Positions 1 to 11,300 of a stretch of 25,318 nucleotides of DNA are shown here, piece after piece. The notes beneath the pieces were generated by a model, which saw nothing but the letters and a program-made list of their open reading frames with translations, was not told the DNA's origin and ran no database searches. Position 1 is the first letter of the stretch, and each line of letters starts with the position of its first letter. The translations under genes were made by a program, and so were the position numbers. This stretch comes from a virus, in IMG/VR virus record IMGVR_UViG_3300030104_003651, positions 1 through 25,318 of that record, one strand, 5' to 3'.

Positions 1-5
1 AGAGA

Positions 6-21
6 GGGGCAGGAATGCCCC
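6..21 (-). terminator. Hairpin, probable terminator at window edge
   Basis: On the minus strand GGGGCA and TGCCCC form a perfect 6-bp stem around the loop TTCC, followed by TCTCT up to the edge of the window. It lies just after the stop of the gene at 31-366 in the direction of transcription, so an intrinsic terminator is likely. The T-tract is interrupted by C and cut off by the edge, so this is not certain. Confidence 0.5.
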
Positions 22-30
22 GATTATGTA

Positions 31-366
31 TCAGCGACGGACGCTTTGCTGATAGTATGTTACGAAGATGTTTTGTCCGACTTCAGGTTCAATCAGACCG
101 CCTTTGTAGCAATCCTCGGAGGTCTGATAGATTGCCATCTTGGAGTTCAATCTAGTCTCAATCTTACCATCAGAACCTAATATCGTGGTCTGAACTTGCT
201 CTGCCCCGTTCTCTTCAAACTCATTCAGAATGTGAGCATAGAGTGTAGTTTTACAATCGAAAAGAGCAGCGGTTGAAATATCATTATCGGTCACAGCAAT
301 ATAGGCACCGCTGAAATCTGGGTTTGCTTGAGCAAATGTTGCGAAGATTGGAGCGGAAAGTGTCAT
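31..366 (-). CDS. Hypothetical protein, 111 aa
   Basis: I do not recognise a family. The ATG at 364-366 lies 21 nt after conserved element copy 1, and no Shine-Dalgarno sequence is visible in front of it. The N terminus (MTLSAPIFATFAQANP) is mildly hydrophobic but lacks the basic residues of a classical signal peptide. The rest is a mixed soluble sequence with two cysteines (about residues 37 and 86). It forms a single-gene unit between the element and the hairpin at 6-21, which supports its being a real gene. Function unknown. Confidence 0.7.
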   Translation of the reverse strand: MTLSAPIFATFAQANPDFSGAYIAVTDNDISTAALFDCKTTLYAHILNEFEENGAEQVQTTILGSDGKIETRLNSKMAIYQTSEDCYKGGLIEPEVGQNIFVTYYQQSVRR

Positions 367-387
367 TTGAAAGAATTGAAAGCGTGG

Positions 388-420
388 TTACACTATAGGG
401 GACATTTGGAGGTTACTAAC
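388..420 (-). promoter_or_regulatory. Conserved 33-nt element, copy 1
   Basis: On the minus strand this reads GTTAGTAACCTCC, AAATGTCC, CCTATAGTGTAA. It is essentially identical to copy 2. The hexamer TATAGT resembles a sigma-70 -10 box and the conserved block covers the -35 region. It precedes the gene at 31-366, whose ATG is 21 nt further on. Confidence 0.75.
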
Positions 421-434
421 AATCTATCAACCTA

Positions 435-737
435 TTATCCCCCATAATACTCTTCCGCTAGTGGTGTGTCAGTGTATACACTAGGCACAGGAAATGATGG
501 GATATAGTCTATACTATTGACGCAGAATCCTGTTGCTGATGTAATCTCTTCTACTAAATCATCACCATCAATTGCCTGCCAGGTGTGGGATTTAACCTCA
601 TCCAGGATCCTAATCTGTTCTGTTGGTGATAACTCAAAGTTATCATCTTCAAAATCCAGGTTGATAGATTTGACTTGAAAGTTCATCGGTTTGTAGATTG
701 AAAGTTTACGAAGTTGACGCAGAGTATCATCGAACAT
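435..737 (-). CDS. Hypothetical acidic cyanophage-type protein, 100 aa
   Basis: I chose the ATG at 735-737 (MFDDTLRQL) over a GTG at 759-761 because GGGAG lies about 8 nt upstream. This start overlaps the end of the preceding gene (stop at 727-729) by 11 nt, which suggests translational coupling. The protein is acidic in its middle (DFEDDNFEL, DGDDLVEEI) and contains a segment TSATGFCVNSIDY that resembles small proteins of unknown function in cyanomyoviruses. It is the second gene of the unit headed by element copy 2. Confidence 0.75.
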   Translation of the reverse strand: MFDDTLRQLRKLSIYKPMNFQVKSINLDFEDDNFELSPTEQIRILDEVKSHTWQAIDGDDLVEEITSATGFCVNSIDYIPSFPVPSVYTDTPLAEEYYGG

Positions 738-1074
738 ACAAGAAACTCCCGTAAGGATCACAAATGTCAGGTTGGTTTGCTAGTTGATCAATCTGAAATC
801 TTATGCCCTTGGCAGGTGCTTTGTATGATGCTGGTTTGTATACATTACCAGTCTCTTTATCAACGAACGCATAACATGAACGTCCACGGATTCTGCCCTC
901 ACTACCAACAAGATATGTCCACAGTTTGAGATACTTACGACCGCATTCATACTCAACCTGAGTATAAACAGAGTGTCCAGATTCAATAGAATCTACCTTG
1001 AAACGGTCATTAAGTTGCTCCACCAAAGATTCAACGAGGAAGGTTGTTTTATCGGTGTTAAGTGTGGTTGTCAT
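727..1074 (-). CDS. Conserved hypothetical cyanophage protein, 115 aa
   Basis: The ATG at 1072-1074 is the first gene start after element copy 2, 15 nt away, without an evident Shine-Dalgarno sequence. The protein has the motif FVDKETGNVYKPASYKAP near residues 70-87, which I recall from small cyanomyovirus proteins of unknown function. I see no catalytic motif and no membrane segment. Its end overlaps the gene at 435-737 by 11 nt. Confidence 0.8.
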   Translation of the reverse strand: MTTTLNTDKTTFLVESLVEQLNDRFKVDSIESGHSVYTQVEYECGRKYLKLWTYLVGSEGRIRGRSCYAFVDKETGNVYKPASYKAPAKGIRFQIDQLANQPDICDPYGSFLYVR

Positions 1075-1089
1075 GGATTCGTGAGGTGA

Positions 1090-1122
1090 TTACACTATAG
1101 GGGACATTTGGAGGTTACTAAC
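1090..1122 (-). promoter_or_regulatory. Conserved 33-nt element, copy 2
   Basis: The minus strand has the same sequence as copy 1, with TATAGT in the -10-like position. It heads the two-gene unit 727-1074 and 435-737. Its TAACCTCC also pairs with GGAGGTTA at the end of the upstream gene, giving an 8-bp hairpin at 1110-1132. Confidence 0.75.
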
Positions 1123-1132
1123 TTTAACCTCC
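1110..1132. repeat. Perfect 8-bp inverted repeat at gene end/element junction
   Basis: GGAGGTTA and TAACCTCC form a perfect stem around a 7-nt loop. One arm is the final Gly-Gly-stop of the gene at 1124-1285 and the other is part of element copy 2. There is no T-tract. This may be chance, since the other copies have no matching arm. Confidence 0.4.
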
Positions 1133-1285
1133 GAACATTTCCTCAAACAGAGGTGTTTCAAACTGTGACTGATATACACGCTCAAGATGAGCAATCCTTT
1201 CTTTACAGAAATCAACGGTTAATTGTGCTTCATACATCTTCTGGCGAAGATCATATTGTTGTTGATTCTTTTCAGTGATTGTCAT
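1124..1285 (-). CDS. Small hypothetical protein, 53 aa
   Basis: This short gene runs from the ATG at 1283-1285 to a TAA at 1124-1126. The protein begins MTITEKNQQQYDLRQKM and ends ETPLFEEMFGG. It is rich in Gln, Glu and Lys and probably a single long helix, perhaps a short coiled coil. It starts 14 nt after element copy 3 and fills the space up to copy 2, so it forms its own unit. No Shine-Dalgarno sequence is visible. Function unknown. Confidence 0.7.
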   Translation of the reverse strand: MTITEKNQQQYDLRQKMYEAQLTVDFCKERIAHLERVYQSQFETPLFEEMFGG

Positions 1286-1299
1286 CGATTGATTGTTGC

Positions 1300-1332
1300 T
1301 TACACCATAGGGGACATTTGGAGGTTACTAAC
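1300..1332 (-). promoter_or_regulatory. Conserved 33-nt element, copy 3
   Basis: The conserved block is intact on the minus strand. The -10-like hexamer is TATGGT instead of TATAGT. It heads the single small gene at 1124-1285 (ATG 14 nt downstream). Confidence 0.72.
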
Positions 1333-1335
1333 AAT

Positions 1336-1926
1336 CTACTGGGATACTTGCTGCGGTGTGCTATTGTATCCGGTGATATTATGGATGCCTGATCCCAAAT
1401 AACCACCTCCGGTCATTGCCGCGATAGTGATAACGAGGACCAACCAAAAACGGGTGTGGAAGTTACTATTTTGCGTGAATTTGCTAGTATACTTGTAACC
1501 AACAAATGCGCCACCAAGTACACCAAACAGCGGCAACAATGCCCATACCATGAACAATCCAATCGCACCAAAAATGATCACCCAGATACCAACTGCCTGA
1601 CCGAAACTGATGCCACTGGTGATAAAATTACCACCACCGTCATTATTATTGTATGTGCCAGATTCGGTTCCTGATGTAGGACCATTTACACAATTAGGGT
1701 GTGGTTTGGAGGTCAAACTCCAGAAATATGGGTCTTGTGAATCTTTTTTCTCAGAGACATGTCTCGCGGCAGGTCGTACACTATTAACGAAGACTTTCTC
1801 CGCAGGATACCTCGCCTCCACAAGATCTATGATGTGAGATCTTTCAGCACGGTCAGATTCGATCTCAAAGTTATGAGTTCGACCTGAACTATCAATCCAA
1901 CGACCTTTACAGATTTGTTGAGTCAT
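1336..1926 (-). CDS. Predicted membrane protein, 196 aa
   Basis: The ATG at 1924-1926 gives MTQQICKGRWIDSSGRTHNF. The first ~100 residues are soluble, ending in a Gly/Asn-rich linker. Hydrophobic stretches follow at about residues 111-131 (AVGIWVIIFGAIGLFMVW), 131-145 and 160-181 (FWLVLVITIAAMTGG), suggesting two or three membrane segments. The gene follows the one at 1932-2297 by 5 nt and belongs to the unit headed by element copy 4. I do not recognise a family. A role at the host inner membrane during infection is only an inference. Confidence 0.75.
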   Translation of the reverse strand: MTQQICKGRWIDSSGRTHNFEIESDRAERSHIIDLVEARYPAEKVFVNSVRPAARHVSEKKDSQDPYFWSLTSKPHPNCVNGPTSGTESGTYNNNDGGGNFITSGISFGQAVGIWVIIFGAIGLFMVWALLPLFGVLGGAFVGYKYTSKFTQNSNFHTRFWLVLVITIAAMTGGGYLGSGIHNITGYNSTPQQVSQ

Positions 1927-1931
1927 GTCAA

Positions 1932-2297
1932 TTAAGAGAGAGAATAGCGACTGATAAGTTTACAATTGTGCCAGAGATAATCATTGCCACCTAGACAATC
2001 ATCACCAATTTCATCCACTGATATGTCATTACCAAACAAACCAAATTCTTCATCACCCTTCTCAAATACGGTCACGGTTGATGAACGACAGGCACGAACA
2101 TCTATCCAAATACTATCACTGATGTCAGCATACTTTTCAGCGATAAAGTTCTCAACGTTGCCGTATAGTGGTTCGTGGATTCTATCAATCCAGATCAAAT
2201 CATGGTCACCATCTTCATATCTTTCTTCACGATCTTCATCCTGCCAGCATTCAATCTGACAGAGTTCACCTTTTTCAGTGTCAAATACAACAGACAT
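1932..2297 (-). CDS. Hypothetical acidic protein, 121 aa
   Basis: The ATG at 2295-2297 overlaps the TAA of the upstream gene (TAATG), a typical coupling arrangement. The protein is strongly acidic (QDEDREERYEDGDHDL near residues 19-34, then many Asp/Glu) with several Trp and Cys. I do not recognise a family. Small acidic early phage proteins are often DNA mimics or inhibitors, but nothing here proves that. Confidence 0.75.
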   Translation of the reverse strand: MSVVFDTEKGELCQIECWQDEDREERYEDGDHDLIWIDRIHEPLYGNVENFIAEKYADISDSIWIDVRACRSSTVTVFEKGDEEFGLFGNDISVDEIGDDCLGGNDYLWHNCKLISRYSLS

Positions 2298-2458
2298 TAG
2301 AGAGACTCCAGAATAGTTTGACGTGCTTGATATGCTTGATGTTGTGAATTAAATGTAGCAATCTTAATGAAGTCATCCCTCCAATAGATTGCCCACTTAT
2401 GTGAACCCCATACACCTTTTACAATGATGGGATTATCAATGCCGAGAGGATAACTCAT
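2297..2458 (-). CDS. Small hypothetical protein, 53 aa
   Basis: Runs from the ATG at 2456-2458 to a TAA at 2297-2299. The protein begins MSYPLGIDNPIIVKGVW and ends ARQTILESL. Its start overlaps the TGA of the upstream gene (ATGA) and its stop overlaps the start of the next gene (TAATG), so it is locked into the operon. The sequence (HKWAIYWRDDFIKIATF) looks like a small beta-rich fold. Function unknown. Confidence 0.72.
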   Translation of the reverse strand: MSYPLGIDNPIIVKGVWGSHKWAIYWRDDFIKIATFNSQHQAYQARQTILESL

Positions 2459-2619
2459 TTGATTAAACCTTGGTCGTAAAGTGCTTCACAAGTTCTACCA
2501 TAATGACCCTGTAACCATTGATATGCTTTTGTATCAAAGATTTCTTGGAAAAGTGTCAAGAACTCATGTTCTTCGATGATACCTTGCTCGTACTTTAGGA
2601 GGAGGTCGGTGTTAGGCAT
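2455..2619 (-). CDS. Small conserved phage protein, DUF7417-like, 54 aa
   Basis: Runs from the ATG at 2617-2619 to a TGA at 2455-2457. The pattern (MPNTDLLLKYEQGIIEEHEF, then FQEIFDT, then WLQGHYGRTCEALYDQGLI) matches, from memory, a widespread small phage/bacterial family of unknown function whose hallmark is a WxLQGHYGRTA-type motif. It is the first gene after element copy 4, 14 nt downstream. The family has no known biochemical role. Confidence 0.8.
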   Translation of the reverse strand: MPNTDLLLKYEQGIIEEHEFLTLFQEIFDTKAYQWLQGHYGRTCEALYDQGLIK

Positions 2620-2633
2620 TTGAGGATTGTGTC

Positions 2634-2666
2634 TTATACTATAGTGGACGTTTGGAGGTTACTAAC
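2634..2666 (-). promoter_or_regulatory. Conserved 33-nt element, copy 4
   Basis: On the minus strand this is GTTAGTAACCTCC, AAACGTCC, ACTATAGTATAA. It heads the ATGA/TAATG-linked unit 2455-2619, 2297-2458, 1932-2297 and 1336-1926. Confidence 0.75.
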
Positions 2667-2671
2667 AATAA

Positions 2672-2833
2672 TCAGAAGATATTTGTCCATTTAATATGTT
2701 GCTCTTGTGTGATACGATGCTCTGATAGCATATTATCGCAAACTCCACAAAATACTTGAAACTTCTGCTCTCTGTTGAGTTTATGCGGAGAAGCAGTTTC
2801 TTTAATAACTTTCAGAAGTTGTGTTTTAGTCAT
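2672..2833 (-). CDS. Small hypothetical protein, 53 aa
   Basis: The open frame extends upstream, but the ATG at 2831-2833 (MTKTQLLKVIKETAS) overlaps the TGA of the gene before it as ATGA, so I prefer this start. The protein contains two cysteines in FCGVCDNML, a CxxC-like spacing that could bind metal, though two Cys alone are weak evidence. It is the last gene of the copy 5 unit. Confidence 0.68.
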   Translation of the reverse strand: MTKTQLLKVIKETASPHKLNREQKFQVFCGVCDNMLSEHRITQEQHIKWTNIF

Positions 2834-2979
2834 GCTTTTGTGATGCCAAGATAAACGGCAGAGGGAATAATTGAAATCCAGATTAGTGGTGCCCAAGCAA
2901 CACCCAACAACAATAATGCGATGCCAAGTGGATACGAACCAGCACCGATTGTCAGTGCTGTGAGTTGCTTACCAGTCAT
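2830..2979 (-). CDS. Small membrane protein, 49 aa
   Basis: Runs from the ATG at 2977-2979 to a TGA at 2830-2832. Nearly the whole sequence after residue 6 is hydrophobic, with segments around ALTIGAGSYPLGIALLLLGV and WAPLIWISIIPSAVYLGI, consistent with two membrane helices and a short loop. It is linked by ATGA to the next gene and starts 2 nt after the stop of the previous one. No family recognised. It could be an inner-membrane effector or holin-like protein, but context does not decide. Confidence 0.68.
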   Translation of the reverse strand: MTGKQLTALTIGAGSYPLGIALLLLGVAWAPLIWISIIPSAVYLGITKA

Positions 2980-2981
2980 GA

Positions 2982-3143
2982 TTAATAATGTGATTCAGAG
3001 TCAGTTACAGTTGAGAGATAGTGATAGATTCGTGGATAACATTTTGCGTTCATGTCATCATCATCATCTCTGTCCAGAAAATCATACAAATAGCGAAGGC
3101 GATTGTATGGGTCTGCTAGATGTTTTTCGACTGCTTTGTTCAT
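2982..3143 (-). CDS. Small hypothetical protein, 53 aa
   Basis: Runs from the ATG at 3141-3143 to a TAA at 2982-2984. The protein begins MNKAVEKHLADPYNRLRYLY, contains a run of five Asp (RDDDDDM) in its middle and ends TVTDSESHY. The start overlaps the previous TGA as ATGA. Function unknown. Confidence 0.7.
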   Translation of the reverse strand: MNKAVEKHLADPYNRLRYLYDFLDRDDDDDMNAKCYPRIYHYLSTVTDSESHY

Positions 3144-3349
3144 GAGTAGTGATTAGCGAGAGGGATCAGATTGGATTCTTCAACAACACTCGGGAGAGGA
3201 GATGTTGCCCACTTGTGAAAGGTTTTACCCTCATCACCTTCATTCATAATGTCCTCAACGAGATTACCTGTTACGGTAACAACGTAGGAACCCACATAGG
3301 GTGCCTGGTAGTGTTCGGAGAGGATTGAGATCGCTTTAGTAGTATTCAT
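3140..3349 (-). CDS. Hypothetical protein, 69 aa, start fused to element
   Basis: The ATG at 3347-3349 comes directly after the TATAGT of element copy 5 and also overlaps the TGA of the methyltransferase gene (ATGA). The protein begins MNTTKAISILSEHYQAPYVG and contains VVTVTGNLVEDIM. No family recognised. If TATAGT were a normal -10 box, a transcript starting from it would not include this ATG. The gene is therefore either read from upstream transcripts or the element works differently. Confidence 0.68.
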   Translation of the reverse strand: MNTTKAISILSEHYQAPYVGSYVVTVTGNLVEDIMNEGDEGKTFHKWATSPLPSVVEESNLIPLANHYS

Positions 3350-3378
3350 ACTATAGCGGACCTTTGGAGGTTACTAAC
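3346..3378 (-). promoter_or_regulatory. Conserved 33-nt element, copy 5, inside a coding sequence
   Basis: On the minus strand this is GTTAGTAACCTCC, AAAGGTCC, GCTATAGTATGA. This copy encodes the last ten residues (VSNLQRSAIV) and stop of the methyltransferase at 3346-4209, and also supplies the ATG of the next gene. It heads the unit 3140-3349, 2982-3143, 2830-2979 and 2672-2833. Confidence 0.72.
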
Positions 3379-4209
3379 TTTATTACAACGCTCTTTTGCT
3401 ATTTGAACATAATCTTCTGACAAATCTATACCAACAAACTCTCTATCAATATTGATACATCCCACACCCGTTGTACCTGAACCACAGAAAGGATCAAGGA
3501 CTTGTCCACCAATAGGACTGTAAATCTTTACGAGATACTCCATCAGACTGACTGGTTTTACAGTAGGGTGGTTGTTATCTTCCCCCTTCTCTTTTCTGGT
3601 TGCGCGTGGAGCATAGAAGTATTTTTGATGCTCTGGTTGTACCTCACCAATGATGTTTGATGGATACCTACCAGCAGGATTTGCGTCCTTTGTGCCATAT
3701 TCAGCACCAGTTCCCTTTGTGTTACCTTCCTTGCCAAATGTGCGACGACGAGCACCACCAGCAACCCAACCTTTTGGTGGTTCTTTATCCCATGGCACAC
3801 GGGTATTATCTACATCTATGATGCCACATCCCCACTGCTCAAAGTTACTTTGTAGTGAACCTTTGTATGGTTTCTGTGCTACAACAATCGGTTCGTGAGC
3901 AGGTTTTAGTCTGTTATGTTTAGGCATCTTGGTGGTAGTCATCCACATAATCTGGTCTTTAATAGTAAAACCAGCATCCTCCACATTCACCGCCATTCGG
4001 TGATACAATTCAGGAGAACAGAAAGATAACAAGAACGCACCCGGTCTTAAAGTTCTATAAACCTCACGCCAGATCTCTACAGTGGGGACAGCATAATCCC
4101 ATGAATCCATACCCATACCATAGGGCGGGTCAGTGATACAAGCATGAAAAAGATTCTCCCCATAAGTGGGAAGAATCTCTTGACAATTACCAGCAGTGAT
4201 TGAGAACAT
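3346..4209 (-). CDS. DNA methyltransferase, beta class (N6-A or N4-C)
   Basis: Predicted S-adenosylmethionine-dependent amino-methyltransferase of about 287 aa. The catalytic motif IV, TDPPYG, is near residues 26-31. The SAM-binding motif I, DPFCGSGTTG, is near the C terminus, preceded by HPTVKP. This order is typical of the permuted beta class. I chose the ATG at 4207-4209 (MFSITAGNCQ) because it is close to motif IV as in the family. It overlaps the nuclease gene at 4187-4717 by 23 nt, suggesting a coupled restriction-modification pair. The target sequence cannot be read from the protein. The last ten codons lie inside conserved element copy 5, so the natural C terminus is YVQIAKERCNK plus an element-derived tail. 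Confidence 0.9.
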   Translation of the reverse strand: MFSITAGNCQEILPTYGENLFHACITDPPYGMGMDSWDYAVPTVEIWREVYRTLRPGAFLLSFCSPELYHRMAVNVEDAGFTIKDQIMWMTTTKMPKHNRLKPAHEPIVVAQKPYKGSLQSNFEQWGCGIIDVDNTRVPWDKEPPKGWVAGGARRRTFGKEGNTKGTGAEYGTKDANPAGRYPSNIIGEVQPEHQKYFYAPRATRKEKGEDNNHPTVKPVSLMEYLVKIYSPIGGQVLDPFCGSGTTGVGCINIDREFVGIDLSEDYVQIAKERCNKVSNLQRSAIV

Positions 4210-4717
4210 TAGATTCGCAGGTTTGGCGTTCAGAGTGTTTGAAATAATCTTTCTTTCCAGCACCACTTTGAGTATACATGTTGCGAATATAAAAGTCAAA
4301 TCCGCGTGAATCTTCTTGCCAATCTTCTTCCATCTGATACATTTTGAGAACTGCGTTAAGTTCTTCAGTCAGATTAGTGAACTGTTGGCGTTTCTTATCG
4401 CTGACAATATCATCAGCAAAGAATATCGTAGTCTCATTGTATCTGGCACTAGAAAAGATGTAAACCACACCTTTTTTGGGCAAACCACCATTGTAAGTGG
4501 GGAAAGTTTGCTTGCTTGACTTACACTCAAGGTCAACAGTTTTACCTGTTGGGAGTGTTACTCTAAAATCAGGACTGTTCTGGATTCCGTTAGGTTGAGC
4601 AACATAATCAATGTTATGTTTGATCAGAAGTTCTTCAACCTGTTGTTCATGAAGTGGATTATCCTGACTGTTTGATTTATAACCAAGGGTCAGAACATCT
4701 TGAAAGAATTGTTTCAT
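4187..4717 (-). CDS. Putative PD-(D/E)XK restriction endonuclease
   Basis: 176-aa protein with a plausible PD-(D/E)XK core: PDF at residues 49-51, then VDLECKSSK with the ECK at 64-66, separated by a short beta-hairpin (TLPTGKT) as in restriction enzymes. The ATG at 4715-4717 lies 30 nt after element copy 6. It is followed by an overlapping DNA methyltransferase gene, the usual arrangement of a type II system, so I infer that it cuts unmethylated DNA. It could instead be a homing-type or housekeeping nuclease. The last ~20 residues are encoded in the overlap and may be poorly conserved. Confidence 0.7.
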   Translation of the reverse strand: MKQFFQDVLTLGYKSNSQDNPLHEQQVEELLIKHNIDYVAQPNGIQNSPDFRVTLPTGKTVDLECKSSKQTFPTYNGGLPKKGVVYIFSSARYNETTIFFADDIVSDKKRQQFTNLTEELNAVLKMYQMEEDWQEDSRGFDFYIRNMYTQSGAGKKDYFKHSERQTCESNVLNHCW

Positions 4718-4747
4718 AGTATCTCGGACTTAATTGCCCGTTGATGC

Positions 4748-4780
4748 TTACAATAGTGTGGACGTTTGAAGGTAACTAAC
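4748..4780 (-). promoter_or_regulatory. Conserved 33-nt element, copy 6 (divergent)
   Basis: On the minus strand this is GTTAGTTACCTTC, AAACGTCC, ACACTATTGTAA. It has changes in the conserved block and a shifted or weakened -10-like hexamer (TATTGT two bases later). It heads the nuclease/methyltransferase pair at 4187-4717 and 3346-4209. Confidence 0.68.
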
Positions 4781-4785
4781 AATAA

Positions 4786-5664
4786 TTACTTGAATCTGCT
4801 GTTGGTGAAGTTAGCATAACTGAACTCTTCACGGTTGACAAGTTTGATGGCACCATTTAGTGTCCAGTATACAAAACCCTCACCCACAGTTGGGTCACCA
4901 TTGGGCAGGAAAGTTTGAAAGTCAGAGTAAACAATCATGTCCTCAATCATCTCTTGCTTACGCTCAATGACCCACAAATACAGGTTGGCAAGATAATTAC
5001 AACGCAAAATAGTTGTAAGGATCTCGTCATCAAGTTTGTAACCAGATGCGACCAGTTGATTGATTGCTTGCTTGGCACGATTTGCCTGCTTTGGTGTCAG
5101 GAACTGAACCCTGCTAGTGTCAATCTCTGGCAGATCTTCATCACGATGGATACGATCAACCGAAGGCATTACGAACTTAACATGAACAGTATCATCAAAA
5201 GATTCACGCAATGGCAGAGGAGTAGCATCACAAAGATCACCGTCAACGTAATACTTTGTATGAGGTGCGATGACAAGTTTCTGCTCAATCTTCTCGGGGA
5301 AGATATAAGTCAAAGTGTTGTTGGTAAATTCACTCTGACGACCGAAACCAATAAAGTCACCCTGATACACACCTTCCGTGCGTGGAAGATACTTAAGCAT
5401 CAAATACAGCAGGTCAGCAACATCTTCCTGATGTCCAAAATGCTGGTGGATGTCTTCAACGGTGTAACAGAGGCGAATCTTTTTCTTGTTGAATGCTGCC
5501 TTGGTACATACAAAGAATTTGCCCTGATAAGTGCCCCAAACAATAGCAGGAGCACCATCAATCTTCAGACCGATGTGAAATGCTGACCCATAAAGGTCAT
5601 CAAAAATAGAAAGATCACCCGTAAGGATAGTATCTTCGGGGTGTTCGAGATGAGTGTTTGCCAT
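4786..5664 (-). CDS. DUF6267-like nucleotidyltransferase/ligase-fold protein
   Basis: 292-aa protein with the signature of covalent nucleotidyltransferases (DNA/RNA ligase superfamily). Motif I is KIDG at residues 34-37, within LKIDGAPAIVWG; an EGVYQGDF segment lies near the middle; motif IV is EGFV at 262-265; and motif V lysine is K274 (IKLVN). The N terminus THLEHPED and the TKAAFNKK segment match my memory of a phage family of unknown function, DUF6267. No separate OB-fold domain is apparent. The ATG directly follows the TATAGT of element copy 7, and the family-like N terminus supports it. It may seal nicked RNA or DNA, but the substrate is unknown. Confidence 0.75.
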   Translation of the reverse strand: MANTHLEHPEDTILTGDLSIFDDLYGSAFHIGLKIDGAPAIVWGTYQGKFFVCTKAAFNKKKIRLCYTVEDIHQHFGHQEDVADLLYLMLKYLPRTEGVYQGDFIGFGRQSEFTNNTLTYIFPEKIEQKLVIAPHTKYYVDGDLCDATPLPLRESFDDTVHVKFVMPSVDRIHRDEDLPEIDTSRVQFLTPKQANRAKQAINQLVASGYKLDDEILTTILRCNYLANLYLWVIERKQEMIEDMIVYSDFQTFLPNGDPTVGEGFVYWTLNGAIKLVNREEFSYANFTNSRFK

Positions 5665-5693
5665 ACTATAGAAGACGTTTGGAGGTTACTAAC
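5661..5693 (-). promoter_or_regulatory. Conserved 33-nt element, copy 7, fused to a start codon
   Basis: On the minus strand this is GTTAGTAACCTCC, AAACGTCT, TCTATAGTATGG. The ATG of the ligase-like gene is contained in the element, immediately after TATAGT, so a classical promoter here would yield no usable leader. Confidence 0.72.
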
Positions 5694-5702
5694 AATAATG
5701 CT

Positions 5703-5969
5703 TTAGAATCCTCGCGAGGATAGTTCATTATCAATCACTTGTTCGATAGTTTCAACGATATATTCATGATCTTCCAAATTGATTGCGTCCAGGATCATTT
5801 TAGCATCAGTTGATGATACTTTCTCTAAATTTGTAGAATCTTCAGCTTCTGTCAAAAGATCATCATTAGTGATGATCCACGCCGCACATGGTGCCTTGGC
5901 AGTTAATTTTGATTCCAATGAATTGACATAGGTTTTTAACTCTGCTACGGTCTTTAGTTTCTTCATCAT
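5703..5969 (-). CDS. Hypothetical protein, 88 aa
   Basis: The ATG at 5967-5969 (MMKKLKTVAELKTYVNSLES) overlaps the previous TGA as ATGA. The N terminus is a basic helix and the C-terminal half is acidic (INLEDHEYIVETIEQVIDNEL), likely all-helical. No family recognised. Last gene of the helicase unit headed by element copy 8. Confidence 0.75.
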   Translation of the reverse strand: MMKKLKTVAELKTYVNSLESKLTAKAPCAAWIITNDDLLTEAEDSTNLEKVSSTDAKMILDAINLEDHEYIVETIEQVIDNELSSRGF

Positions 5970-6193
5970 GACTTTTTACGGGATCGCTTGTGTTTATCTA
6001 TAAAGTTTATTGCTGATTGTCTGTTTCTACACACTTTAAGTACGTTTGCTTGATGAACAACAGCGAGTTTAGTTGTGTTGCCAGCAATAGGCACAGCAGC
6101 ATACATTTTGGGATCATCATACTTACCGACGATGAATCCCTCCTCGTATGGTACAGCATCAAGCAAACTTGTTCTGATATATGTTATTTTCAT
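5966..6193 (-). CDS. Hypothetical protein, 75 aa
   Basis: The ATG at 6191-6193 overlaps the TGA of the preceding gene. The first 50 residues (MKITYIRTSLLDAVPYEEGF) look like a small beta-rich domain; the end is strongly basic (DKHKRSRKKS), suggesting nucleic acid contact. No family recognised. Confidence 0.72.
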   Translation of the reverse strand: MKITYIRTSLLDAVPYEEGFIVGKYDDPKMYAAVPIAGNTTKLAVVHQANVLKVCRNRQSAINFIDKHKRSRKKS

Positions 6194-6351
6194 ACTAATC
6201 TCTTCCGTGCCTCTTTTACCGTGATTCTACGGGATTCATTACAAATCTTGGTTATGATTTGCTCTGCTCCATTAAGTTCATACCTATACTTGGATTTACA
6301 ATTCCGAAGCAAACAAGAAAGAATCCCCACTTCATGATCTTTTAGTTCCAT
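6190..6351 (-). CDS. Small basic hypothetical protein, 53 aa
   Basis: Runs from the ATG at 6349-6351 to a TGA at 6190-6192. The start has one of the strongest ribosome binding sites in this region: AAGGAGG five nt upstream, formed by the end of the helicase gene. The protein begins MELKDHEVGILSCLLRNCKS and ends basic (RRITVKEARKRLV). It is coupled to the next gene by ATGA. Function unknown. Confidence 0.72.
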   Translation of the reverse strand: MELKDHEVGILSCLLRNCKSKYRYELNGAEQIITKICNESRRITVKEARKRLV

Positions 6352-6353
6352 GA

Positions 6354-7535
6354 TTACCTCCTTACAACAGAATCCATGATTTCACCTTTTTCAAACACGG
6401 TGTCAACAACCCTCTGTAATGCTCGCTCGGTAGCGATACCCACATTGGAATAAACAGGGACACAAAGTAGACCATAGGACTTGGAATCGCCACCCTTACG
6501 GAGCACACGACCCACAGTCTGTGTCATCTCAATGACATCCATGTTACGCAGGAAGATAACACATTCAAGTTCAGACACATTGATACCTTCAGCAAGGATT
6601 GAACGATGAAGTACAACAAACTTGCGATCAGGATCTTTACCCCAAGCGTTCAGAACTTCAAAGAACTTCTCGCGGGATACTTTCTTGCCATTGATAACAG
6701 CACCAGTCTTGGAAGTGATGTAGAGATAATCATATCCACGCTTCTCAAGTTGATAAGCAAAATCAGTCTGAAACAGATTGATAAGTTGCTTGGTGGTTCT
6801 CACACAGGTGAGAATCTTCTTGATGCCGATGTCATCAATAGTCCTGATGATATTGTTAGAATCCATGCCAGGACTGATGGACTTGACTGGCATTTTCGCC
6901 ATGTCAATAACCTTCACTTTAGGAGGAAGAATGAACTTACCTTCTACCAGTTTAGGAGCAGAAACACGCGAGATAATCTGACCATAAACATCAGCATTGT
7001 TCATGCCTGGTTTGTTGGGAGTGACAGAAGTCTTGCGGGTTGCTGTGAAATAGTAGCAACGATCTGCCTTCTTGCTAAAGTGCTCAACCGAAGGATAGAA
7101 GTTACGCTGAACACTGTTATGTGCCTCATCAAAGTAGATTGTATCGACAGGAATATCTGCCTCAACAACACGATGGAGAGAATGATAAGTGGTGAAGATA
7201 ATAGTATGCTCACGCACTGTCTCACACATAGAGACAAACAGTTTGATACGATCAGACTTCGTAGTTCTGAAATGCTTTGTCTCTCCACTGTGAACATGAA
7301 GGACATTAGCATTAGTCACATGCTCAAGAAACTCGGAAGAGAGTTGTTCTGCGAGCAAAATACGAGGACAAACAACAACAATATTACGAGGAACTTTGAT
7401 CTCAAAACGACGCACAGCGTCCATGATTGCGACCAGAGTCTTACCACCGCCAGTGGGAAAGATACACTGACCAATAGAATTAACTTTAAGGGCGTTAAGT
7501 GCGTCTTGCTGATGAGGGCGAAGAGTTACGGTCAT
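6354..7535 (-). CDS. DEAH-type superfamily 2 helicase
   Basis: 393-aa ATP-dependent helicase/translocase. Walker A is FPTGGGKT at residues 26-33, Walker B is DEAH at 136-139, motif III is FTAT near residue 164, and motif VI is QTVGRVLRKG near the C terminus. The N-terminal RPHQQDAL is the Q-like motif of the Rad25/UvsW/type III Res group. I use the ATG at 7533-7535 (MTVTLRPHQQ) rather than the TTG one codon upstream; it is 12 nt after element copy 8. It has no nuclease domain. It could act in replication or recombination, as UvsW does in T4, or with the flanking nuclease/methylase genes. Confidence 0.88.
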   Translation of the reverse strand: MTVTLRPHQQDALNALKVNSIGQCIFPTGGGKTLVAIMDAVRRFEIKVPRNIVVVCPRILLAEQLSSEFLEHVTNANVLHVHSGETKHFRTTKSDRIKLFVSMCETVREHTIIFTTYHSLHRVVEADIPVDTIYFDEAHNSVQRNFYPSVEHFSKKADRCYYFTATRKTSVTPNKPGMNNADVYGQIISRVSAPKLVEGKFILPPKVKVIDMAKMPVKSISPGMDSNNIIRTIDDIGIKKILTCVRTTKQLINLFQTDFAYQLEKRGYDYLYITSKTGAVINGKKVSREKFFEVLNAWGKDPDRKFVVLHRSILAEGINVSELECVIFLRNMDVIEMTQTVGRVLRKGGDSKSYGLLCVPVYSNVGIATERALQRVVDTVFEKGEIMDSVVRR

Positions 7536-7547
7536 CAAATCAGTTGG

Positions 7548-7580
7548 TTACAATATAGAGGACATTTGGAGGTAACTAAC
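7548..7580 (-). promoter_or_regulatory. Conserved 33-nt element, copy 8
   Basis: On the minus strand this is GTTAGTTACCTCC, AAATGTCC, TCTATATTGTAA, with a good -10-like hexamer TATATT. It heads the helicase unit (6354-7535, 6190-6351, 5966-6193, 5703-5969). Confidence 0.75.
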
Positions 7581-7584
7581 AATA

Positions 7585-8319
7585 TCATAATGGAAGTTTA
7601 CCTACGTTGATACGACTTACTGCCCTATCAAAGTATTCTTTTTCTCGTTCAATCCCAATAAACTTTCTATCTTCCATATTTGCTGCTATTCCAGTTGTTC
7701 CGGCACCCATACAAGGGTCAAGTACAGTATCACCAGGGTTTGAATATGTTCTCACTAACCATCTATAAAGTTCAACAGGTTTCTGTGTGGGGTGAAACTT
7801 ACCCTCACTTTCTGCTGTCTTAAAGTATATCACACTTCTAGGATAACGTGTTCCCTCCTCATTTTTGACGTGAACTGCTTTGGTTTGTTTACCATATTGT
7901 TCGCAGTCTCGTAATGCTTTACCCTTGTCATATGGGTCACCCGATGTCATCTGTGGATTGTAAGTTGGTTGTTTCTTGTAGAAAACTACAATGTCCTCAT
8001 GTGCTCTCATCGGTTGCTTTTTAGCATTTAAGTAACCAGTTGCCTTGCTCTTCTCCCATACTAGATTATACTTGAAATCTCTGTAGTTTGTAGAGATCAA
8101 TACAGATGTGAATGGTTGTGCTGCTGTTGATATAATCGCACAATTTGGTTTACAAATTACACCAACAATCTCCCAAAATCTATCATAATCGATGATACGA
8201 TCCCACTGATTGCGAGACTTGTTTAATGTCCCATAGGGAAAATCTGTTAATAGAAGATCAATGCTCTGGGGTTCAAGATTACCCAGAACATTGAACATAT
8301 CATCGTTGTATAACATCAT
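7585..8319 (-). CDS. DNA methyltransferase, beta class, with DFPY motif
   Basis: About 244-aa predicted N4/N6 amino-methyltransferase. Motif IV reads TDFPYG at residues 25-30 instead of the usual DPPY. Motif I, DPCMGAGTTG, is C-terminal, with HPTQKP before it, so the order is beta class. The open frame starts at a TTG, but the ATG at 8317-8319 overlaps the nuclease stop as ATGA and is more likely. The tight coupling to 8316-8888 argues for a second restriction-modification-like pair. DLPY/DFPY variants occur in phage methylases, so it may well be active. The recognition site is unknown. Confidence 0.88.
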   Translation of the reverse strand: MMLYNDDMFNVLGNLEPQSIDLLLTDFPYGTLNKSRNQWDRIIDYDRFWEIVGVICKPNCAIISTAAQPFTSVLISTNYRDFKYNLVWEKSKATGYLNAKKQPMRAHEDIVVFYKKQPTYNPQMTSGDPYDKGKALRDCEQYGKQTKAVHVKNEEGTRYPRSVIYFKTAESEGKFHPTQKPVELYRWLVRTYSNPGDTVLDPCMGAGTTGIAANMEDRKFIGIEREKEYFDRAVSRINVGKLPL

Positions 8320-8888
8320 TTCAACCAATCGATGAACTCATTATAGACAGAGGTGTCAAGTCTAAAGTCCTCACGATACTCTTCTTTGTAGATAGAACGA
8401 GAAGATGAACGCTTACGCGAAGGATTGACAAAAAAGATCTTCACTTCCTTGCCTGTAATCTTTTTGAAAAAAGCAAGATAGTAGGCAAAAGCATCCTTCC
8501 CACAGGCATTTTGTCCAGCGAAGATTGCGTACTCTACATTGTCAGGAACATCAGGAGATTGATCCAGTTCAATGAAGTCCATTACAGCACGTTTGAGATA
8601 GCAAGCATCCAAATAACATTTAGATTCGACTGCTTTCGTCATCACATCGTTGTGGTAGATGTGTTTATCAACCTGAAGATTCTTCAGGCAAGTGCCATCA
8701 ACCTCCTCGGTACGTTTGTAATCATTTCTGCGAGCATCTAGTCCCAATTTATCACAAGTTCTTTCAATCAAGTTTTCATAAACTAGACCAGATGCTGACC
8801 GAGCAGCACCACCACCCAACTCAAAATGAGTCTGGGGAAGTTTATCAACTTCGGTTTCGTACTGTTCAATGATGTCAAGTAAACTCAT
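8316..8888 (-). CDS. Putative type II restriction endonuclease (PD-(D/E)XK-like)
   Basis: 190-aa protein. GLVYENLIERTCDKLG (E39) is followed by LQVDKHIYHN (D74) and AVESKCYLDACYLKRAVMDF (E88-S-K90), the spacing of an E...D...ExK nuclease core. The segment ESKCYLD..YLKRA is similar to what I recall from type II restriction enzymes. A Ser/Arg-rich stretch (SRKRSSSRS) near residue 160 may contact DNA. The ATG at 8886-8888 lies 19 nt after the previous stop. The overlapping methyltransferase downstream supports a restriction role. Confidence 0.72.
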   Translation of the reverse strand: MSLLDIIEQYETEVDKLPQTHFELGGGAARSASGLVYENLIERTCDKLGLDARRNDYKRTEEVDGTCLKNLQVDKHIYHNDVMTKAVESKCYLDACYLKRAVMDFIELDQSPDVPDNVEYAIFAGQNACGKDAFAYYLAFFKKITGKEVKIFFVNPSRKRSSSRSIYKEEYREDFRLDTSVYNEFIDWLK

Positions 8889-8907
8889 GATAAAAAAGAT
8901 AAGATGA

Positions 8908-9126
8908 TCAGGCGGCAGATTCTTCTGCTGTTGTTGTTGCTTTGCCTACGTTAGATGGACCTTTCCAAACTAGACCATTCTCTTCCCAATGTGCGATAAA
9001 TGCCCGACGAAGATCAGTAAGTTCATTATACCGTGCTTGCTGCTCTTTTGTCCAGTTAAAGTTATTATCTCTCCACACTTTGCGGAGTTCTTGAAGTTCA
9101 CGAAGGATGGTTGAAGAATTGTTCAT
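8908..9126 (-). CDS. Hypothetical helical protein, 72 aa
   Basis: The ATG at 9124-9126 is 12 nt after element copy 9. The sequence (STILRELQELRKVWRDNNFN, then KEQQARYNELTDLRRAFIAHW) is almost entirely heptad-like helix, ending in a flexible Thr/Ala/Glu tail. It precedes the second restriction-modification pair and might be its controller, but I see no clear helix-turn-helix, so that is only a possibility. Confidence 0.72.
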   Translation of the reverse strand: MNNSSTILRELQELRKVWRDNNFNWTKEQQARYNELTDLRRAFIAHWEENGLVWKGPSNVGKATTTAEESAA

Positions 9127-9138
9127 GATGATTGATGA

Positions 9139-9171
9139 TTACGATGTAGTGGACGTTTGGAGGTTACTAAC
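9139..9171 (-). promoter_or_regulatory. Conserved 33-nt element, copy 9
   Basis: On the minus strand this is GTTAGTAACCTCC, AAACGTCC, ACTACATCGTAA. The conserved block is perfect but the -10-like hexamer is degraded to TACATC. It heads the unit 8908-9126, 8316-8888 and 7585-8319. Confidence 0.7.
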
Positions 9172-9172
9172 T

Positions 9173-9382
9173 TTATTCTTGCTCACATGTGATGTCACGA
9201 TATTCTTCAATGATTCTATTCAAATCATCGACACAGTATCTCATGGCATAGGTGGAGTATCCCGTGGCGTAAGGATAAGTCCTTTCGACACCACTTTCCT
9301 CCCTTGAATCTACTTCATCGCAGACTCTTACAGCATCTTGTAACCTTTCAACTATACTAATCAGTTGATTGTCAAGATTCAT
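9173..9382 (-). CDS. Hypothetical protein, 69 aa
   Basis: The ATG at 9380-9382 is 14 nt after element copy 10. The protein begins MNLDNQLISIVERLQDAVRV and is acidic, with two helical stretches separated by a Tyr/Ala-rich middle (YPYATGYSTYAM). It is a single-gene unit, as its stop lies 1 nt before element copy 9. No family recognised. Confidence 0.72.
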   Translation of the reverse strand: MNLDNQLISIVERLQDAVRVCDEVDSREESGVERTYPYATGYSTYAMRYCVDDLNRIIEEYRDITCEQE

Positions 9383-9396
9383 TGTTTTCTCGTTGT

Positions 9397-9429
9397 CTAC
9401 ACCATAGTGGACATTCCGAGGTAACTAAC
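9397..9429 (-). promoter_or_regulatory. Conserved 33-nt element, copy 10 (divergent, outermost)
   Basis: On the minus strand this is GTTAGTTACCTCG, GAATGTCC, ACTATGGTGTAG. It is the most upstream copy and marks the boundary with the basic-protein genes; I see no further copies at higher coordinates. Confidence 0.68.
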
Positions 9430-9440
9430 AATAATACCTG

Positions 9441-10121
9441 TCAATTAGCAGCAGCAAGTTGTTTCTGTGGTGGTTTATTCTTATTAGGTGTGTTTGCTGT
9501 CACCTTTTGATTATTCTTGGAGGGTGATAATGCCTTTTGAGAACCACTACCAGTTACTTTCTTTTTATCACCTGAACCAATATAACCTGCCCTCTTTGGT
9601 CCGAGTACAGTAACTCTAACTGGTTTAATTCCTGATTGTGTGGCAGGTTTAGATTCTGGTCTCTTCGTTATTGATGAAGAACCAGGTTTTAATGCCTTAC
9701 GTTGTGGTGTTCCTGCTAGTTTCTTTTTAATATCACCACGTTGTGCTGTTCCTAGCATAGGACGTGATTTAACAGCAGTTTTAGCAGCAGTTTTAGCAGC
9801 AGTTTTTGCTGCTGTTTTAATAACATCAGAGGTTGTCTTTTTAGTCTTCGCTAATGCTCCACCCTTTTCAGGTTTAGGTGTTGCTTCTTTATTCTTCATT
9901 CTATATGGTGCTGGTTTGCGTTTCTGTTCAGAACCTGCTGTATTCTTACCAGCATTCTTGATACTTTGAACCGCACCTTTAGCAGCACCTTTCAAGGCAG
10001 AACCTAAACCAGTTCTAGGTCTTTTCTTAAATGATTTATATGAACCACCTTCGGTGCCTGATGTAGAATAATCAGCAACACCTTGTGGACCCTCTGTAAT
10101 AAACTCTTGAAAAGATTTCAT
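9441..10121 (-). CDS. Basic low-complexity protein with T4-like capsid-targeting N terminus
   Basis: 226-aa, very Lys/Ala/Gly/Pro-rich and probably disordered. It begins MKSFQEFITEGPQG, close to the T4 internal-protein capsid-targeting sequence (MKTYQEFIAE type). Its I-T-E at residues 8-10 fits the (L/I)xE cleavage preference of the T4 gp21 prohead protease. The middle has four tandem KTAA-type units (12-bp DNA repeats at 9771-9818), and the rest has many PK, KR and KP pairs suited to binding DNA. The ATG overlaps the stop of the preceding, similar gene as ATGA. I infer a virion-packaged, DNA-associated protein. Function not established. Confidence 0.72.
   Translation of the reverse strand: MKSFQEFITEGPQGVADYSTSGTEGGSYKSFKKRPRTGLGSALKGAAKGAVQSIKNAGKNTAGSEQKRKPAPYRMKNKEATPKPEKGGALAKTKKTTSDVIKTAAKTAAKTAAKTAVKSRPMLGTAQRGDIKKKLAGTPQRKALKPGSSSITKRPESKPATQSGIKPVRVTVLGPKRAGYIGSGDKKKVTGSGSQKALSPSKNNQKVTANTPNKNKPPQKQLAAAN
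9771..9818. repeat. Four tandem 12-bp repeats encoding KTAA units
   Basis: Four consecutive 12-bp units (agcagcagtttt type on the plus strand; the last has synonymous tgctgctg) encode the repeated Lys-Thr-Ala-Ala stretch of the basic protein. The units are nearly identical and likely arose by slippage. Confidence 0.8.
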
Positions 10122-10873
10122 GTTGACATCCTCTTGTGGACTCTACCCATGATCTTGGTTCTACCCTTGGCATCAGGATTTGTGCCTGTTTCTTTCTTAT
10201 ACTTGGCAGTTTCTTGGTCTTTCATGATACCACGCAGCATTGTTTCGCCTTTACGTTGCTGCTTCATTCTTTCCTGACGAGTCATACCAGATGCCTTTGC
10301 TGGTTTATAATCAGGAGAGACAGATTTAGTCTCTTTCTTTTTCAGGAGTTTAGATGCTTCTTTACTAGCATCTTTTGTAGATGTGGCAGGTTTCTTCGCA
10401 TCACCACCACCTTTTTTGGCGGCAATTCTTGCCTGTGCTGCTTTCTTCCTCTCTGCTTTCACTTTATCAGCATAGGATTGTTTTACCTCTGCTGACCCTC
10501 TTTCTTTTGTTGGTTGTTGTTCACGTTCAGATCTTGCTTTGGTAGTACCAACATCCTTTCTAGTCTTATATTCACCCACAGGGGCAGATTTGCCACCACC
10601 TGTTGCCTTGACCCTAGGTTTTACACCTGGTCGTCTTCTTGAACCAGTATCTCTTTTAGGTTCTTTTCTACCATCAGCACCGGTCTGTTTGATTTGAGAT
10701 CTACCTTGGACTTCAGGATCATACGCCTCCATGTTAGTGGTGGTATGCTGATGTGCCATCTTACGCTGTTTTGCTTTCTGTCTTCTCTGACGATATTCAG
10801 CGTTCTTATTTGCTTGGTTGAGAGGATTATCTTGGGGATCAATATCCTCCATGAATTGTTGAAATGTCTTCAT
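10118..10873 (-). CDS. Basic virion-type protein with MKTFQQFMED N terminus
   Basis: 251-aa, highly basic (long stretches such as RRQKAKQRKMAHQ and AERKKAAQARIAAKKGGG). It matches my memory of a cyanomyovirus protein family with the segments YKTRKDVGTTKARSEREQQP, RIAAKKG, SKLLKKK and SPDYKPAKASGMTR. The N terminus resembles the T4 capsid-targeting peptide, but the expected cleavage tripeptide reads M-E-D rather than (L/I)xE, so processing is less certain than for its neighbour. Gene order and style suggest a packaged head protein. It overlaps both neighbours by ATGA. Confidence 0.78.
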   Translation of the reverse strand: MKTFQQFMEDIDPQDNPLNQANKNAEYRQRRQKAKQRKMAHQHTTTNMEAYDPEVQGRSQIKQTGADGRKEPKRDTGSRRRPGVKPRVKATGGGKSAPVGEYKTRKDVGTTKARSEREQQPTKERGSAEVKQSYADKVKAERKKAAQARIAAKKGGGDAKKPATSTKDASKEASKLLKKKETKSVSPDYKPAKASGMTRQERMKQQRKGETMLRGIMKDQETAKYKKETGTNPDAKGRTKIMGRVHKRMST

Positions 10874-11058
10874 GATTGTACGACGGAAGCACCATCAAAT
10901 CCACCATTTTTGCCATCGGTATTTACAAGCATAGCATCTGCTTTTGCTTTGGTAGAATAACTAACCCTACCCACTGATTCATCAGACCAACGATTTCCAC
11001 CATGATAGTACATGGTACGTCCGTCTAATTTGCCGGGTCTTGTAATATGATACGCCAT
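10870..11058 (-). CDS. Small conserved cyanophage protein, 62 aa
   Basis: The ATG at 11056-11058 starts 2 nt after a perfect 12-bp inverted repeat. The sequence MAYHITRPGKLDGRTMYYHG followed by NRWSDESVGRVSYSTKAKAD has the layout of small repeat-like domains common in cyanophage genomes (YY.G.NRW....R..Y.TKA.A), apparently a single beta-rich unit. Function unknown. It is coupled by ATGA to the basic protein gene downstream. Confidence 0.78.
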   Translation of the reverse strand: MAYHITRPGKLDGRTMYYHGGNRWSDESVGRVSYSTKAKADAMLVNTDGKNGGFDGASVVQS

Positions 11059-11060
11059 AA

Positions 11061-11094
11061 CAGGAAGACTAATATATTTTATTTAGTCTTCCTG
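11061..11094 (-). promoter_or_regulatory. Perfect 12-bp inverted repeat with late-promoter-like core
   Basis: CAGGAAGACTAA and its exact complement flank a 10-nt AT-only loop. On the minus strand CTAAATAA (11079-11086) in the loop and stem edge resembles the T4 late promoter core TATAAATA, 20 nt before the ATG at 11058. The palindrome ends 2 nt before that ATG, so an RNA carrying it would have a hairpin next to the start codon. It could be a terminator (no T-tract), an operator or a translational control site. Confidence 0.6.
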
Positions 11095-11105
11095 ACTAAT
11101 TTAGT

Positions 11106-11276: not shown

Positions 11277-11300
11277 GGTGAACTCCTGAACTACTTTAAC

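What the first reader, a model, noticed from the sequence alone, without database searches (positions are those of the whole stretch)
388..9429. Ten phased copies of a 33-nt element head every transcription unit of the left region
Copies at 388, 1090, 1300, 2634, 3346, 4748, 5661, 7548, 9139 and 9397 (33 nt each) all lie in the same orientation, just upstream of a gene or operon start, and none is seen beyond 9430. The block GTTAGT(A/T)ACCTCC-AAAnGTCC is better conserved than the -10-like hexamer (TATAGT, TATGGT, TATATT, TACATC). That suggests a dedicated DNA-binding factor plus sigma-70, analogous to but different in sequence from T4 MotA middle promoters. In eight copies the leader would be short (12-30 nt to the ATG from the element edge). 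This looks like a phage-specific early/middle regulon signal.
Basis: partly seen in the sequence, partly recalled or inferred. Interest (0 to 1): 0.78.

Follow-up and report, generated by a model that had tools for sequence, protein, structure and literature searches.

The report
Cyanophage early-gene promoter array
A family of marine viruses of cyanobacteria places one shared DNA signal in front of many genes of a cluster thought to act early in infection, and comparison of hundreds of copies suggests that messages start right at the signal's edge, often directly on the protein's first codon.

Summary
Confirmed: ten co-directional copies of a 33-nt element, 0.01 expected, each shortly upstream of a gene start, none beyond 9429. 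Related arrays with clade-specific left blocks sit in the cluster of small genes of S-SM2, SynMITS9220M01, S-B05, RB11-B, S-B43 and P-TIM68 and in 214 stretches of viral contigs; nine other cyanomyoviruses gave none. Best reading: a phage-clade-specific promoter of the early-type region. About a quarter of copies carry ATG directly after TATAGT (p30-32). Where the gene has another start, this ATG is in frame in 38 of 39 (replication 42 of 48; controls 43%, 39%); elsewhere it is the only start, as for the DUF6267 gene, a one-gene unit in the window. p30 is a purine in 509 of 510 copies. This argues that the message contains p30 and probably begins there, giving leaderless or short-leader mRNAs. 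Read-through RNA could also explain part of it. Polymerase and factor are unknown; a basic protein with a capsid-targeting-like N-terminus co-occurs (6 of 7 against 0 of 9). No transcript was mapped.

The parts
388..420 (-). element copy; downstream ORF 31-366, ATG at p55
1090..1122 (-). element copy; downstream ORF 727-1074 (DUF7717), ATG at p49
1300..1332 (-). element copy; downstream ORF 1124-1285, ATG at p48
2634..2666 (-). element copy; downstream ORF 2455-2619, ATG at p48
3346..3378 (-). element copy with ATG at p30 as only qualifying start of ORF 3140-3349; the upstream methyltransferase ORF 3346-4299 reads through the element and stops at TGA overlapping this ATG
4748..4780 (-). element copy (1 mismatch); downstream ORF 4187-4717, ATG at p64
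5661..5693 (-). element copy (1 mismatch) with ATG at p30 as only qualifying start of ORF 4786-5664 (DUF6267)
7548..7580 (-). element copy; downstream helicase ORF 6354-7538 (first start TTG 7538; ATG at p46 = 7535)
9139..9171 (-). element copy; downstream ORF 8908-9126, ATG at p46
9397..9429 (-). element copy (1 mismatch), most upstream of the array; downstream ORF 9173-9382, ATG at p48
4786..5664 (-). DUF6267 / phrog_455 gene, the only gene between the copy at 5661-5693 and the next copy, which starts 5 nt after its stop
   Evidence: Pfam PF19782 E 6e-64, model position 1 at residue 3; phrog_455; gap 5 nt
10118..10873 (-). lysine/arginine-rich protein (251 aa) with capsid-targeting-like N-terminus (likeness recalled); candidate injected partner, role not shown
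   Evidence: sequence; homologues
9441..10121 (-). second basic protein (226 aa, K+R 22%) with capsid-targeting-like N-terminus, next to the array; homologues not searched among phages

Best explanation
The element is a phage-clade-specific promoter used repeatedly through the early-type gene cluster of a subgroup of cyanomyoviruses. Recognition runs over p1-p29: a clade-specific left block (GTTAGTWACC, [AG]TTACTCACC or GGGGGGTCG), a middle CTCYAAANGTCC-like block, and TA(G/A)T at p26-29. The transcript most likely begins at the purine p30 directly after this T. About a quarter of copies put ATG at p30 and would give leaderless mRNA; most of the rest (90 of 139 with a qualifying start) would give a leader of 13-20 nt. 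Shown from sequence: element, placement, clustering, selection on ATG at p30, purine at p30. Inferred: that it acts in DNA as a promoter, the exact start, early timing. Unknown: polymerase and recognition factor; most likely host RNA polymerase redirected by an injected or newly made phage protein.
For: Copies and clustering. Start-codon test: 201 non-redundant copies (31 of 232 dropped because the left block did not match); 58 have ATG at p30; where another start exists at p36-75 it is in frame in 38 of 39, against 51 of 119 for other copies, Fisher 1e-10. By gene family 19 of 20 are always in frame against 7 of 37; within-family permutation P 1e-4; in the six families with both classes 17 of 17 against 19 of 38. 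Replication on 160 new loci, 309 further copies: 42 of 48 against 68 of 176, 9e-10. ATG at p16 shows no such rule: of 89, 81 close before the main start and of the 8 that do not, 1 is in frame and 7 out (Fisher against p30 1e-6), which brackets the 5' end to p17-30, on 8 cases. p30 is a purine in 200 of 201 and 309 of 309 and 11 of 11 in P-TIM68. In the first set G at p32 occurs almost only when it makes ATG (58 of 83 with A30, 1 of 89 with G30). Non-ATG copies start at p43-50 in 90 of 139, p31-42 in 2, later in 47. 10 of 28 strictly ATG-p30-only copies head single-gene units, window 5693 among them. In L042 such a copy has no other copy in the 6.2 kb held upstream. The ATG class is A/C-rich after the start; [quoted passage not shown] coli and is enhanced by downstream CA repeats. 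No copy in the window scored as sigma-70-like with its TATAGT.
Against: No 5' ends were mapped. Genes are co-directional and tightly packed, so read-through mRNA also contains p30. Sigma-70-like sites exist in the region: 39 found against 24.7 +/- 5.3 in shuffles, and four on the minus strand end at or within 34 nt upstream of a copy (9170, 5727, 4813, 444), so ordinary promoters might feed the p30 starts there; some gaps of S-SM2 and SynMITS9220M01 look sigma-70-like by eye too. p35-36 is CA in most copies (C .64/.55, A .78/.67), like an initiator for a start at p36. T26, A27 and T31 also fit a -10 in another register (start near p38). ATG at p16 is more often closed by a stop at p31 (93 of 102 against 58 of 86 without it; 69 of 72 against 40 of 52 in intact TATAGT copies), a hint that p16 is sometimes in RNA. 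In the GGGGGG clade the frame rule is not significant alone (4 of 5 against 16 of 39, p 0.16) and GTG at p30 is not avoided (10 GTG, 7 ATG). I found no polymerase in these phages that would explain the geometry.
Confidence: 0.54

Rival explanations
1. Sigma-70-type promoter plus phage DNA-binding factor: -10 at p24-29 (or TANNNT at p26-31), start at p35-38; the ATG at p30 is used only in read-through mRNA from upstream promoters.
For: TATAGT is the commonest hexamer (126 of 201); CA at p35-36 and conserved T26, A27, T31; predicted leader hairpins begin at p34-35 in nine of eleven folds; AT-rich p-5..0 and p-17..-13, though p-7..+3 is also where many upstream stop codons fall; sigma-70-like sites just upstream of four of ten window copies.
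Against: p25, the -11 equivalent, is A in only .82 and .54 of the two sets, and p24 is A or T about equally in the second. None of the ten copies scored as sigma-70-like with its TATAGT. ATG at p30 is in frame in 38 of 39 and 42 of 48, whereas ATG at p16, equally present in read-through RNA, is not (8 cases). 10 of 28 ATG-p30-only copies head one-gene units whose gene such a promoter could not express. The upstream stop position does not differ between classes (p 0.41). The logo shows no conserved promoter boxes upstream of p-17 in the stretch printed, p-24 onward.
Confidence: 0.26
2. RNA-level signal: the element is transcribed and acts as an mRNA processing site or ribosome-recruiting element that creates or selects a start at p30 or at p43-50.
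For: Narrow spacing between element and start codon; in many copies the upstream stop is at p-7..+3, so the element fills the intergenic space.
Against: No pairing is evident in the element (inspection of the logo; not folded); left blocks change completely between clades at fixed spacing; one class puts a structured leader in between, with the ATG at p116-133.
Confidence: 0.13
3. Recently spread repeat (mobile or recombination-generated) without regulatory function.
For: Copies are near-identical within a genome and repeated many times.
Against: Copies of one array share one strand and lie near starts; kept before different genes in different phages with variation at the same positions; left block exchanged as a unit between clades.
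Confidence: 0.03

Closest known systems
Early-gene regulatory element of cyanophage Syn9 (Doron et al. 2016, ISME J; paper not held; abstract recalled, not seen)
   Same: A novel element said to control early genes of T4-like cyanophages; Syn9 too has a repeated motif in its cluster of small genes at 46-53 kb.
   Different: The sequence reported here was not found in Syn9 or S-PM2 (0 copies by whole-genome scan); Syn9's repeated motif differs. Whether it is the published motif is not known to me.
T4 MotA/AsiA middle promoters
   Same: Phage-specific block upstream of a TATA-like sequence; repeated before many genes.
   Different: Block sequence differs (MotA box recalled); conservation runs to p33; cyanomyoviruses are reported to lack motA and asiA (PMC2984593 section 10 passage; PMC5780444 passages); ATG can directly follow the TATA-like hexamer.
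Promoters of phage RNA polymerases whose consensus ends at a purine start (AR9 late promoters: AACA-6N-T(A/G), last purine = start; PMC5312081 passages)
   Same: T followed by a purine at the inferred start.
   Different: No RNAP Rpb1_5 or Rpb2_6 domain found in S-SM2, SynMITS9220M01, S-B05 or RB11-B (0 of 4, controls 14 of 14); T7-type RNAP family 0 of 10 but its control did not ring.
Leaderless mRNAs of bacteria (PMC9031893, passages)
   Same: AUG at the inferred 5' end, A/C-rich start of the coding region.
   Different: Here within one promoter cassette reused before many unrelated genes; not proven.

Membership tests
sigma-70 promoter with -10 = TATAGT | Near-invariant A at -11 and T at -7 | tested here: not met
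   p25 A .82 and .54 although copies were chosen for TATAGT-likeness; p29 T .97 in both sets
sigma-70 promoter with -10 = TATAGT | A -35-like hexamer 16-18 nt upstream | tested here: not met
   None of ten copies listed with its TATAGT among 39 sigma-70-like sites
sigma-70 promoter with -10 = TATAGT | Start 5-9 nt downstream of the hexamer | tested here: inconclusive
   Indirect: ATG at p30 selected and in frame argues against; CA at p35-36 argues for; no 5' ends mapped
T4 MotA middle promoter | MotA box sequence (recalled) | tested here: not met
   Logo of 187 copies shows GTTAGTWACCTCCAAANGTCC, no MotA-box-like core
T4 MotA middle promoter | motA and asiA genes | not tested
   Not searched here; literature passages say absent from cyanomyoviruses
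Syn9-type early element | Same motif as in Syn9 | tested here: not met
   0 copies in Syn9 and in S-PM2; the published motif itself was not seen
Syn9-type early element | Controls early-time transcription | not testable with these tools
   No transcript data
T7-like RNA polymerase promoter | Phage encodes a single-subunit RNA polymerase | tested here: inconclusive
   PF00940 0 of 10 records; control genomes did not ring
Promoter of a phage multisubunit RNA polymerase | Phage beta and beta-prime-like subunits | tested here: not met
   PF04998 and PF00562 0 of 4, controls 14 of 14
Leaderless-mRNA promoter | Start codon at the transcript 5' end | tested here: inconclusive
   5' end bracketed to p17-30 by frame selection; no 5' end mapped

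The most novel reading that the evidence does not exclude
A promoter class outside the sigma-70 -10 rule: the phage injects a basic capsid-targeted protein (or an unrecognised polymerase) that recognises clade-specific left blocks and starts RNA at the purine directly after TAGT. About a quarter of the promoter copies thereby make leaderless mRNAs whose first codons (often M-N-T/N-T) belong to the promoter cassette.
Probability: 0.25. Interest if true: 0.82.

Novelty: new variant of a known kind. Interest (0 to 1): 0.62.

Why it matters
How T4-like cyanophages control early and middle transcription without Alt, MotA or AsiA was described as unclear in a 2010 review (PMC2984593 passage). This gives a sequence-defined regulon marker across about two hundred contigs, a precise testable start position, a frame-selection method for bracketing transcript ends without RNA, better start-codon calls for many genes, and a short list of possibly injected candidate factors.

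Tried and rejected
Palindrome or dimer-site reading of GTTAGTAAC: position 7 is A or T with no matching change at position 3 (logo). Anti-Shine-Dalgarno reading of ACCTCC: not kept in the GGGGGG clade. Upstream open reading frame from ATG at p16: position 17 is T in only about half the copies; stop association noted but weak. T7-type polymerase: not found, control silent. T4 late promoter TATAAATA: one hit in the window, 0.93 expected. The first whole-record pattern was one base short and is superseded. Gibbs sampling on Syn9 gave no strong motif; k-mer counting found its own repeat. Rfam: no match at gathering score in 11 sources, 107,386 bases (S-B05 not among them). The 'basic protein predicts element' idea held for P-TIM68 and AG-345-O18 but failed twice: S-B43 has the element without the protein, and fragment AG-345-E15 has the protein without a detected element.

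Literature on the specific motif: in the listings and passages seen from nine searches I noticed no description of it; the Syn9 transcriptome paper is not held, so I cannot say that the motif is unpublished.

Full report
What is there. The window is a 25,318-base virus record; no more of its genome is held. By DNA it has only short matches to three records of two Synechococcus phages. Of the ORFs scanned, the left region has methyltransferases, a helicase, a DUF6267 protein and unknown proteins; the right region has tail-fibre-like proteins, 2OG oxygenases and a ferrochelatase-like protein.

Numbering. p1 is the G of GTTAGT, TATAGT is p24-29 and the edge of the 33-mer is p33.

Spread. An exact pattern is present in 54 stretches of viral contigs. 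A logo of 187 non-redundant copies, from 330 with up to 3 mismatches and enough flank in the window plus 54 loci, shows near-invariant p1-6, p8-10, p14-16 and p18-20 (these positions were used to pick the copies) and, not used for picking, p26 .95, p27 .88, p29 .96, with p24-25 at .78 and .77. Arrays with other left blocks were seen in upstream sequences of S-SM2 and SynMITS9220M01 and by matrix scan in S-B05 and RB11-B. Patterns for them hit 31, 59 and 58 stretches of viral contigs, and a variant of the window's block hit 34, 22 of them already held: 214 stretches in all. Whole-genome scans: S-SM2 11 copies, SynMITS9220M01 10, S-B05 14, S-PM2 0, Syn9 0; they lie in the cluster of small genes, S-B05 having two more at 156 kb. 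By pattern, RB11-B 12, S-B43 8, P-TIM68 13 and AG-345-O18 9. S-SM1, P-SSM2, P-HM2, S-RSM4, S-SSM7, P-SSM4, S-H38, S-PM2 and Syn9 give 0 or 1 stray hit with each of the two patterns; reversed controls gave 0-3 per record. A variant with both halves changed would be missed.

Start-codon test. Of 232 non-redundant copies, 31 had no qualifying ATG start at p24-139; separately, 201 of the 232 passed the left-block filter and 31 were dropped. Codons at p30-32: GTA 87, ATG 58, ATA 25, ACA 14, GTG 1. Of the 58 with ATG, 39 have another start at p36-75 with an ORF of at least 45 aa, and 38 of these 39 are in frame with p30; without ATG at p30 the corresponding frame holds in 51 of 119 (Fisher 1e-10). 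The other 19 have no other qualifying start; in 18 the p30 ORF is at least 48 aa, in one (L051) only 24 aa. Downstream proteins fall into 62 families, 24 with ATG-p30 members. Family-level and permutation controls agree. In 160 new loci (643 copies, 309 non-redundant, 299 of them from the other clades) 42 of 48 are in frame against 68 of 176; 23 more have only the p30 start and 3 neither. One of the six exceptions, L113, is by its N-terminus a DUF6267-type gene whose p30 frame is the long one. By clade: TTACTC 38 of 43 against 49 of 130 (4e-9); GGGGGG 4 of 5 against 16 of 39 (not significant); the ten new GTTAGTW copies had no ATG at p30.

What it implies. An out-of-frame ATG at p30 is rare and an in-frame one is favoured, so p30 is in translated RNA. 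ATG at p16 shows 7 out-of-frame and 1 in-frame case among the 8 whose frame runs past the main start, while 81 close earlier (contrast Fisher 1e-6), although read-through RNA would contain p16 too. This brackets the relevant 5' end to p17-30, on few cases. In the bracket p30 is always a purine yet evenly A or G (200 of 201; 309 of 309), as expected of an initiating nucleotide; T precedes it in .97. The scans that chose these copies scored p8-29 and the left block only, so p30 was not selected for. For the DUF6267 gene the Pfam domain begins at residue 3 of the window protein, and no other qualifying ATG precedes it. Its relatives start at the same residue whether the ATG is at p30 or at p45-48. 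10 of 28 strictly p30-only copies are followed by the next copy 0-19 nt after that gene's stop; 15 head longer units and 3 have no next copy in the contig.

Against this reading: CA at p35-36, the TANNNT register at p26-31, the p16 stop association, the GGGGGG clade and possible read-through. A consensus scan of window 1-9500 found 39 sigma-70-like sites against 24.7 +/- 5.3 in shuffles. None uses a copy's TATAGT, but four minus-strand sites end at or within 34 nt upstream of a copy, one of them (5755-5727) before the DUF6267 unit. I give 0.54 to the promoter with a start at the element edge and 0.26 to the sigma-70-like version.

Partner candidate. Two lysine/arginine-rich proteins whose N-termini resemble T4 capsid-targeting sequences (letters recalled, not seen in a paper) lie next to the array. 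The 251-aa one and its S-SM2 relative match S-SM2, SynMITS9220M01, S-B05, RB11-B, RN05-S, P-TIM68 and two single-cell virus fragments, and no other of 50,697 phage records at E 1e-3; the 226-aa one was not searched. PMC9026906 (passages) describes T4 internal proteins as basic, targeted by their first ten residues and in many cases ejected into the host, and Alt as modifying host RNA polymerase. Tested array phages with the protein: 6 of 7 (S-B43 lacks it); phages without an array: 0 of 9. A hand-computed hypergeometric value is 0.0009, but phylogeny is not controlled for. AG-345-E15 carries the protein but no element was found in its 16.8 kb. This is a lead, not a result.

Known work. From recall only, the Syn9 transcriptome paper reports a novel early element in T4-like cyanophages; I could not read it. 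Syn9 lacks the present sequence. I therefore call this a new variant of a known kind.

Noticed in passing
L001 1152+, L009, L018, L032 3581+, L035, L039, L049, L054 537+, S-B05 L055 13556- (related loci, not the window): In some copies the element is followed by a roughly 65-nt 5' leader predicted to fold into a long hairpin with conserved internal-loop strands CTTCTC and TTGYTTC and stems that, by eye, change in a compensatory way (pairs not counted). The stem begins at p34-35 in nine of eleven folds. No Rfam match in the sources searched (S-B05 not included). Possibly a new structured leader RNA.
   Followed up: partly
window 9441-10121(-) and 10118-10873(-): Two adjacent basic proteins with capsid-targeting-like N-termini, directly upstream of the array: possible internal head proteins.
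   Followed up: partly
window 3346-4299(-): A methyltransferase ORF reads through the entire element and ends at TGA overlapping the next gene's ATG, so the element also encodes its C-terminus.
   Followed up: no
Syn9 46337, 47252, 48606, 51048, 53044: Syn9 has its own repeat, like TCGTGTATTCTATAAGAGTCAAAGG (0-7 mismatches), shortly upstream of gene starts in its cluster of small genes, a possible counterpart with a different sequence.
   Followed up: partly
L274 (P-TIM68) 11048-18074: P-TIM68 keeps the left block GTTAGTWACCTCTAAA but has a different right half, mostly ending TAAT before a purine.
   Followed up: partly
S-SM2 59228-59995 and homologues in SynMITS9220M01 and S-B05: A 255-aa protein at the end of the cluster, about 83-84% identical between these element-bearing phages, with no hit in Syn9 or S-PM2 at E 1e-3.
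   Followed up: no
window 9198-9170, 5755-5727, 4841-4813, 472-444 (-): Sigma-70-like sites ending at or just upstream of four of the ten copies; could be chance or alternative promoters.
   Followed up: no
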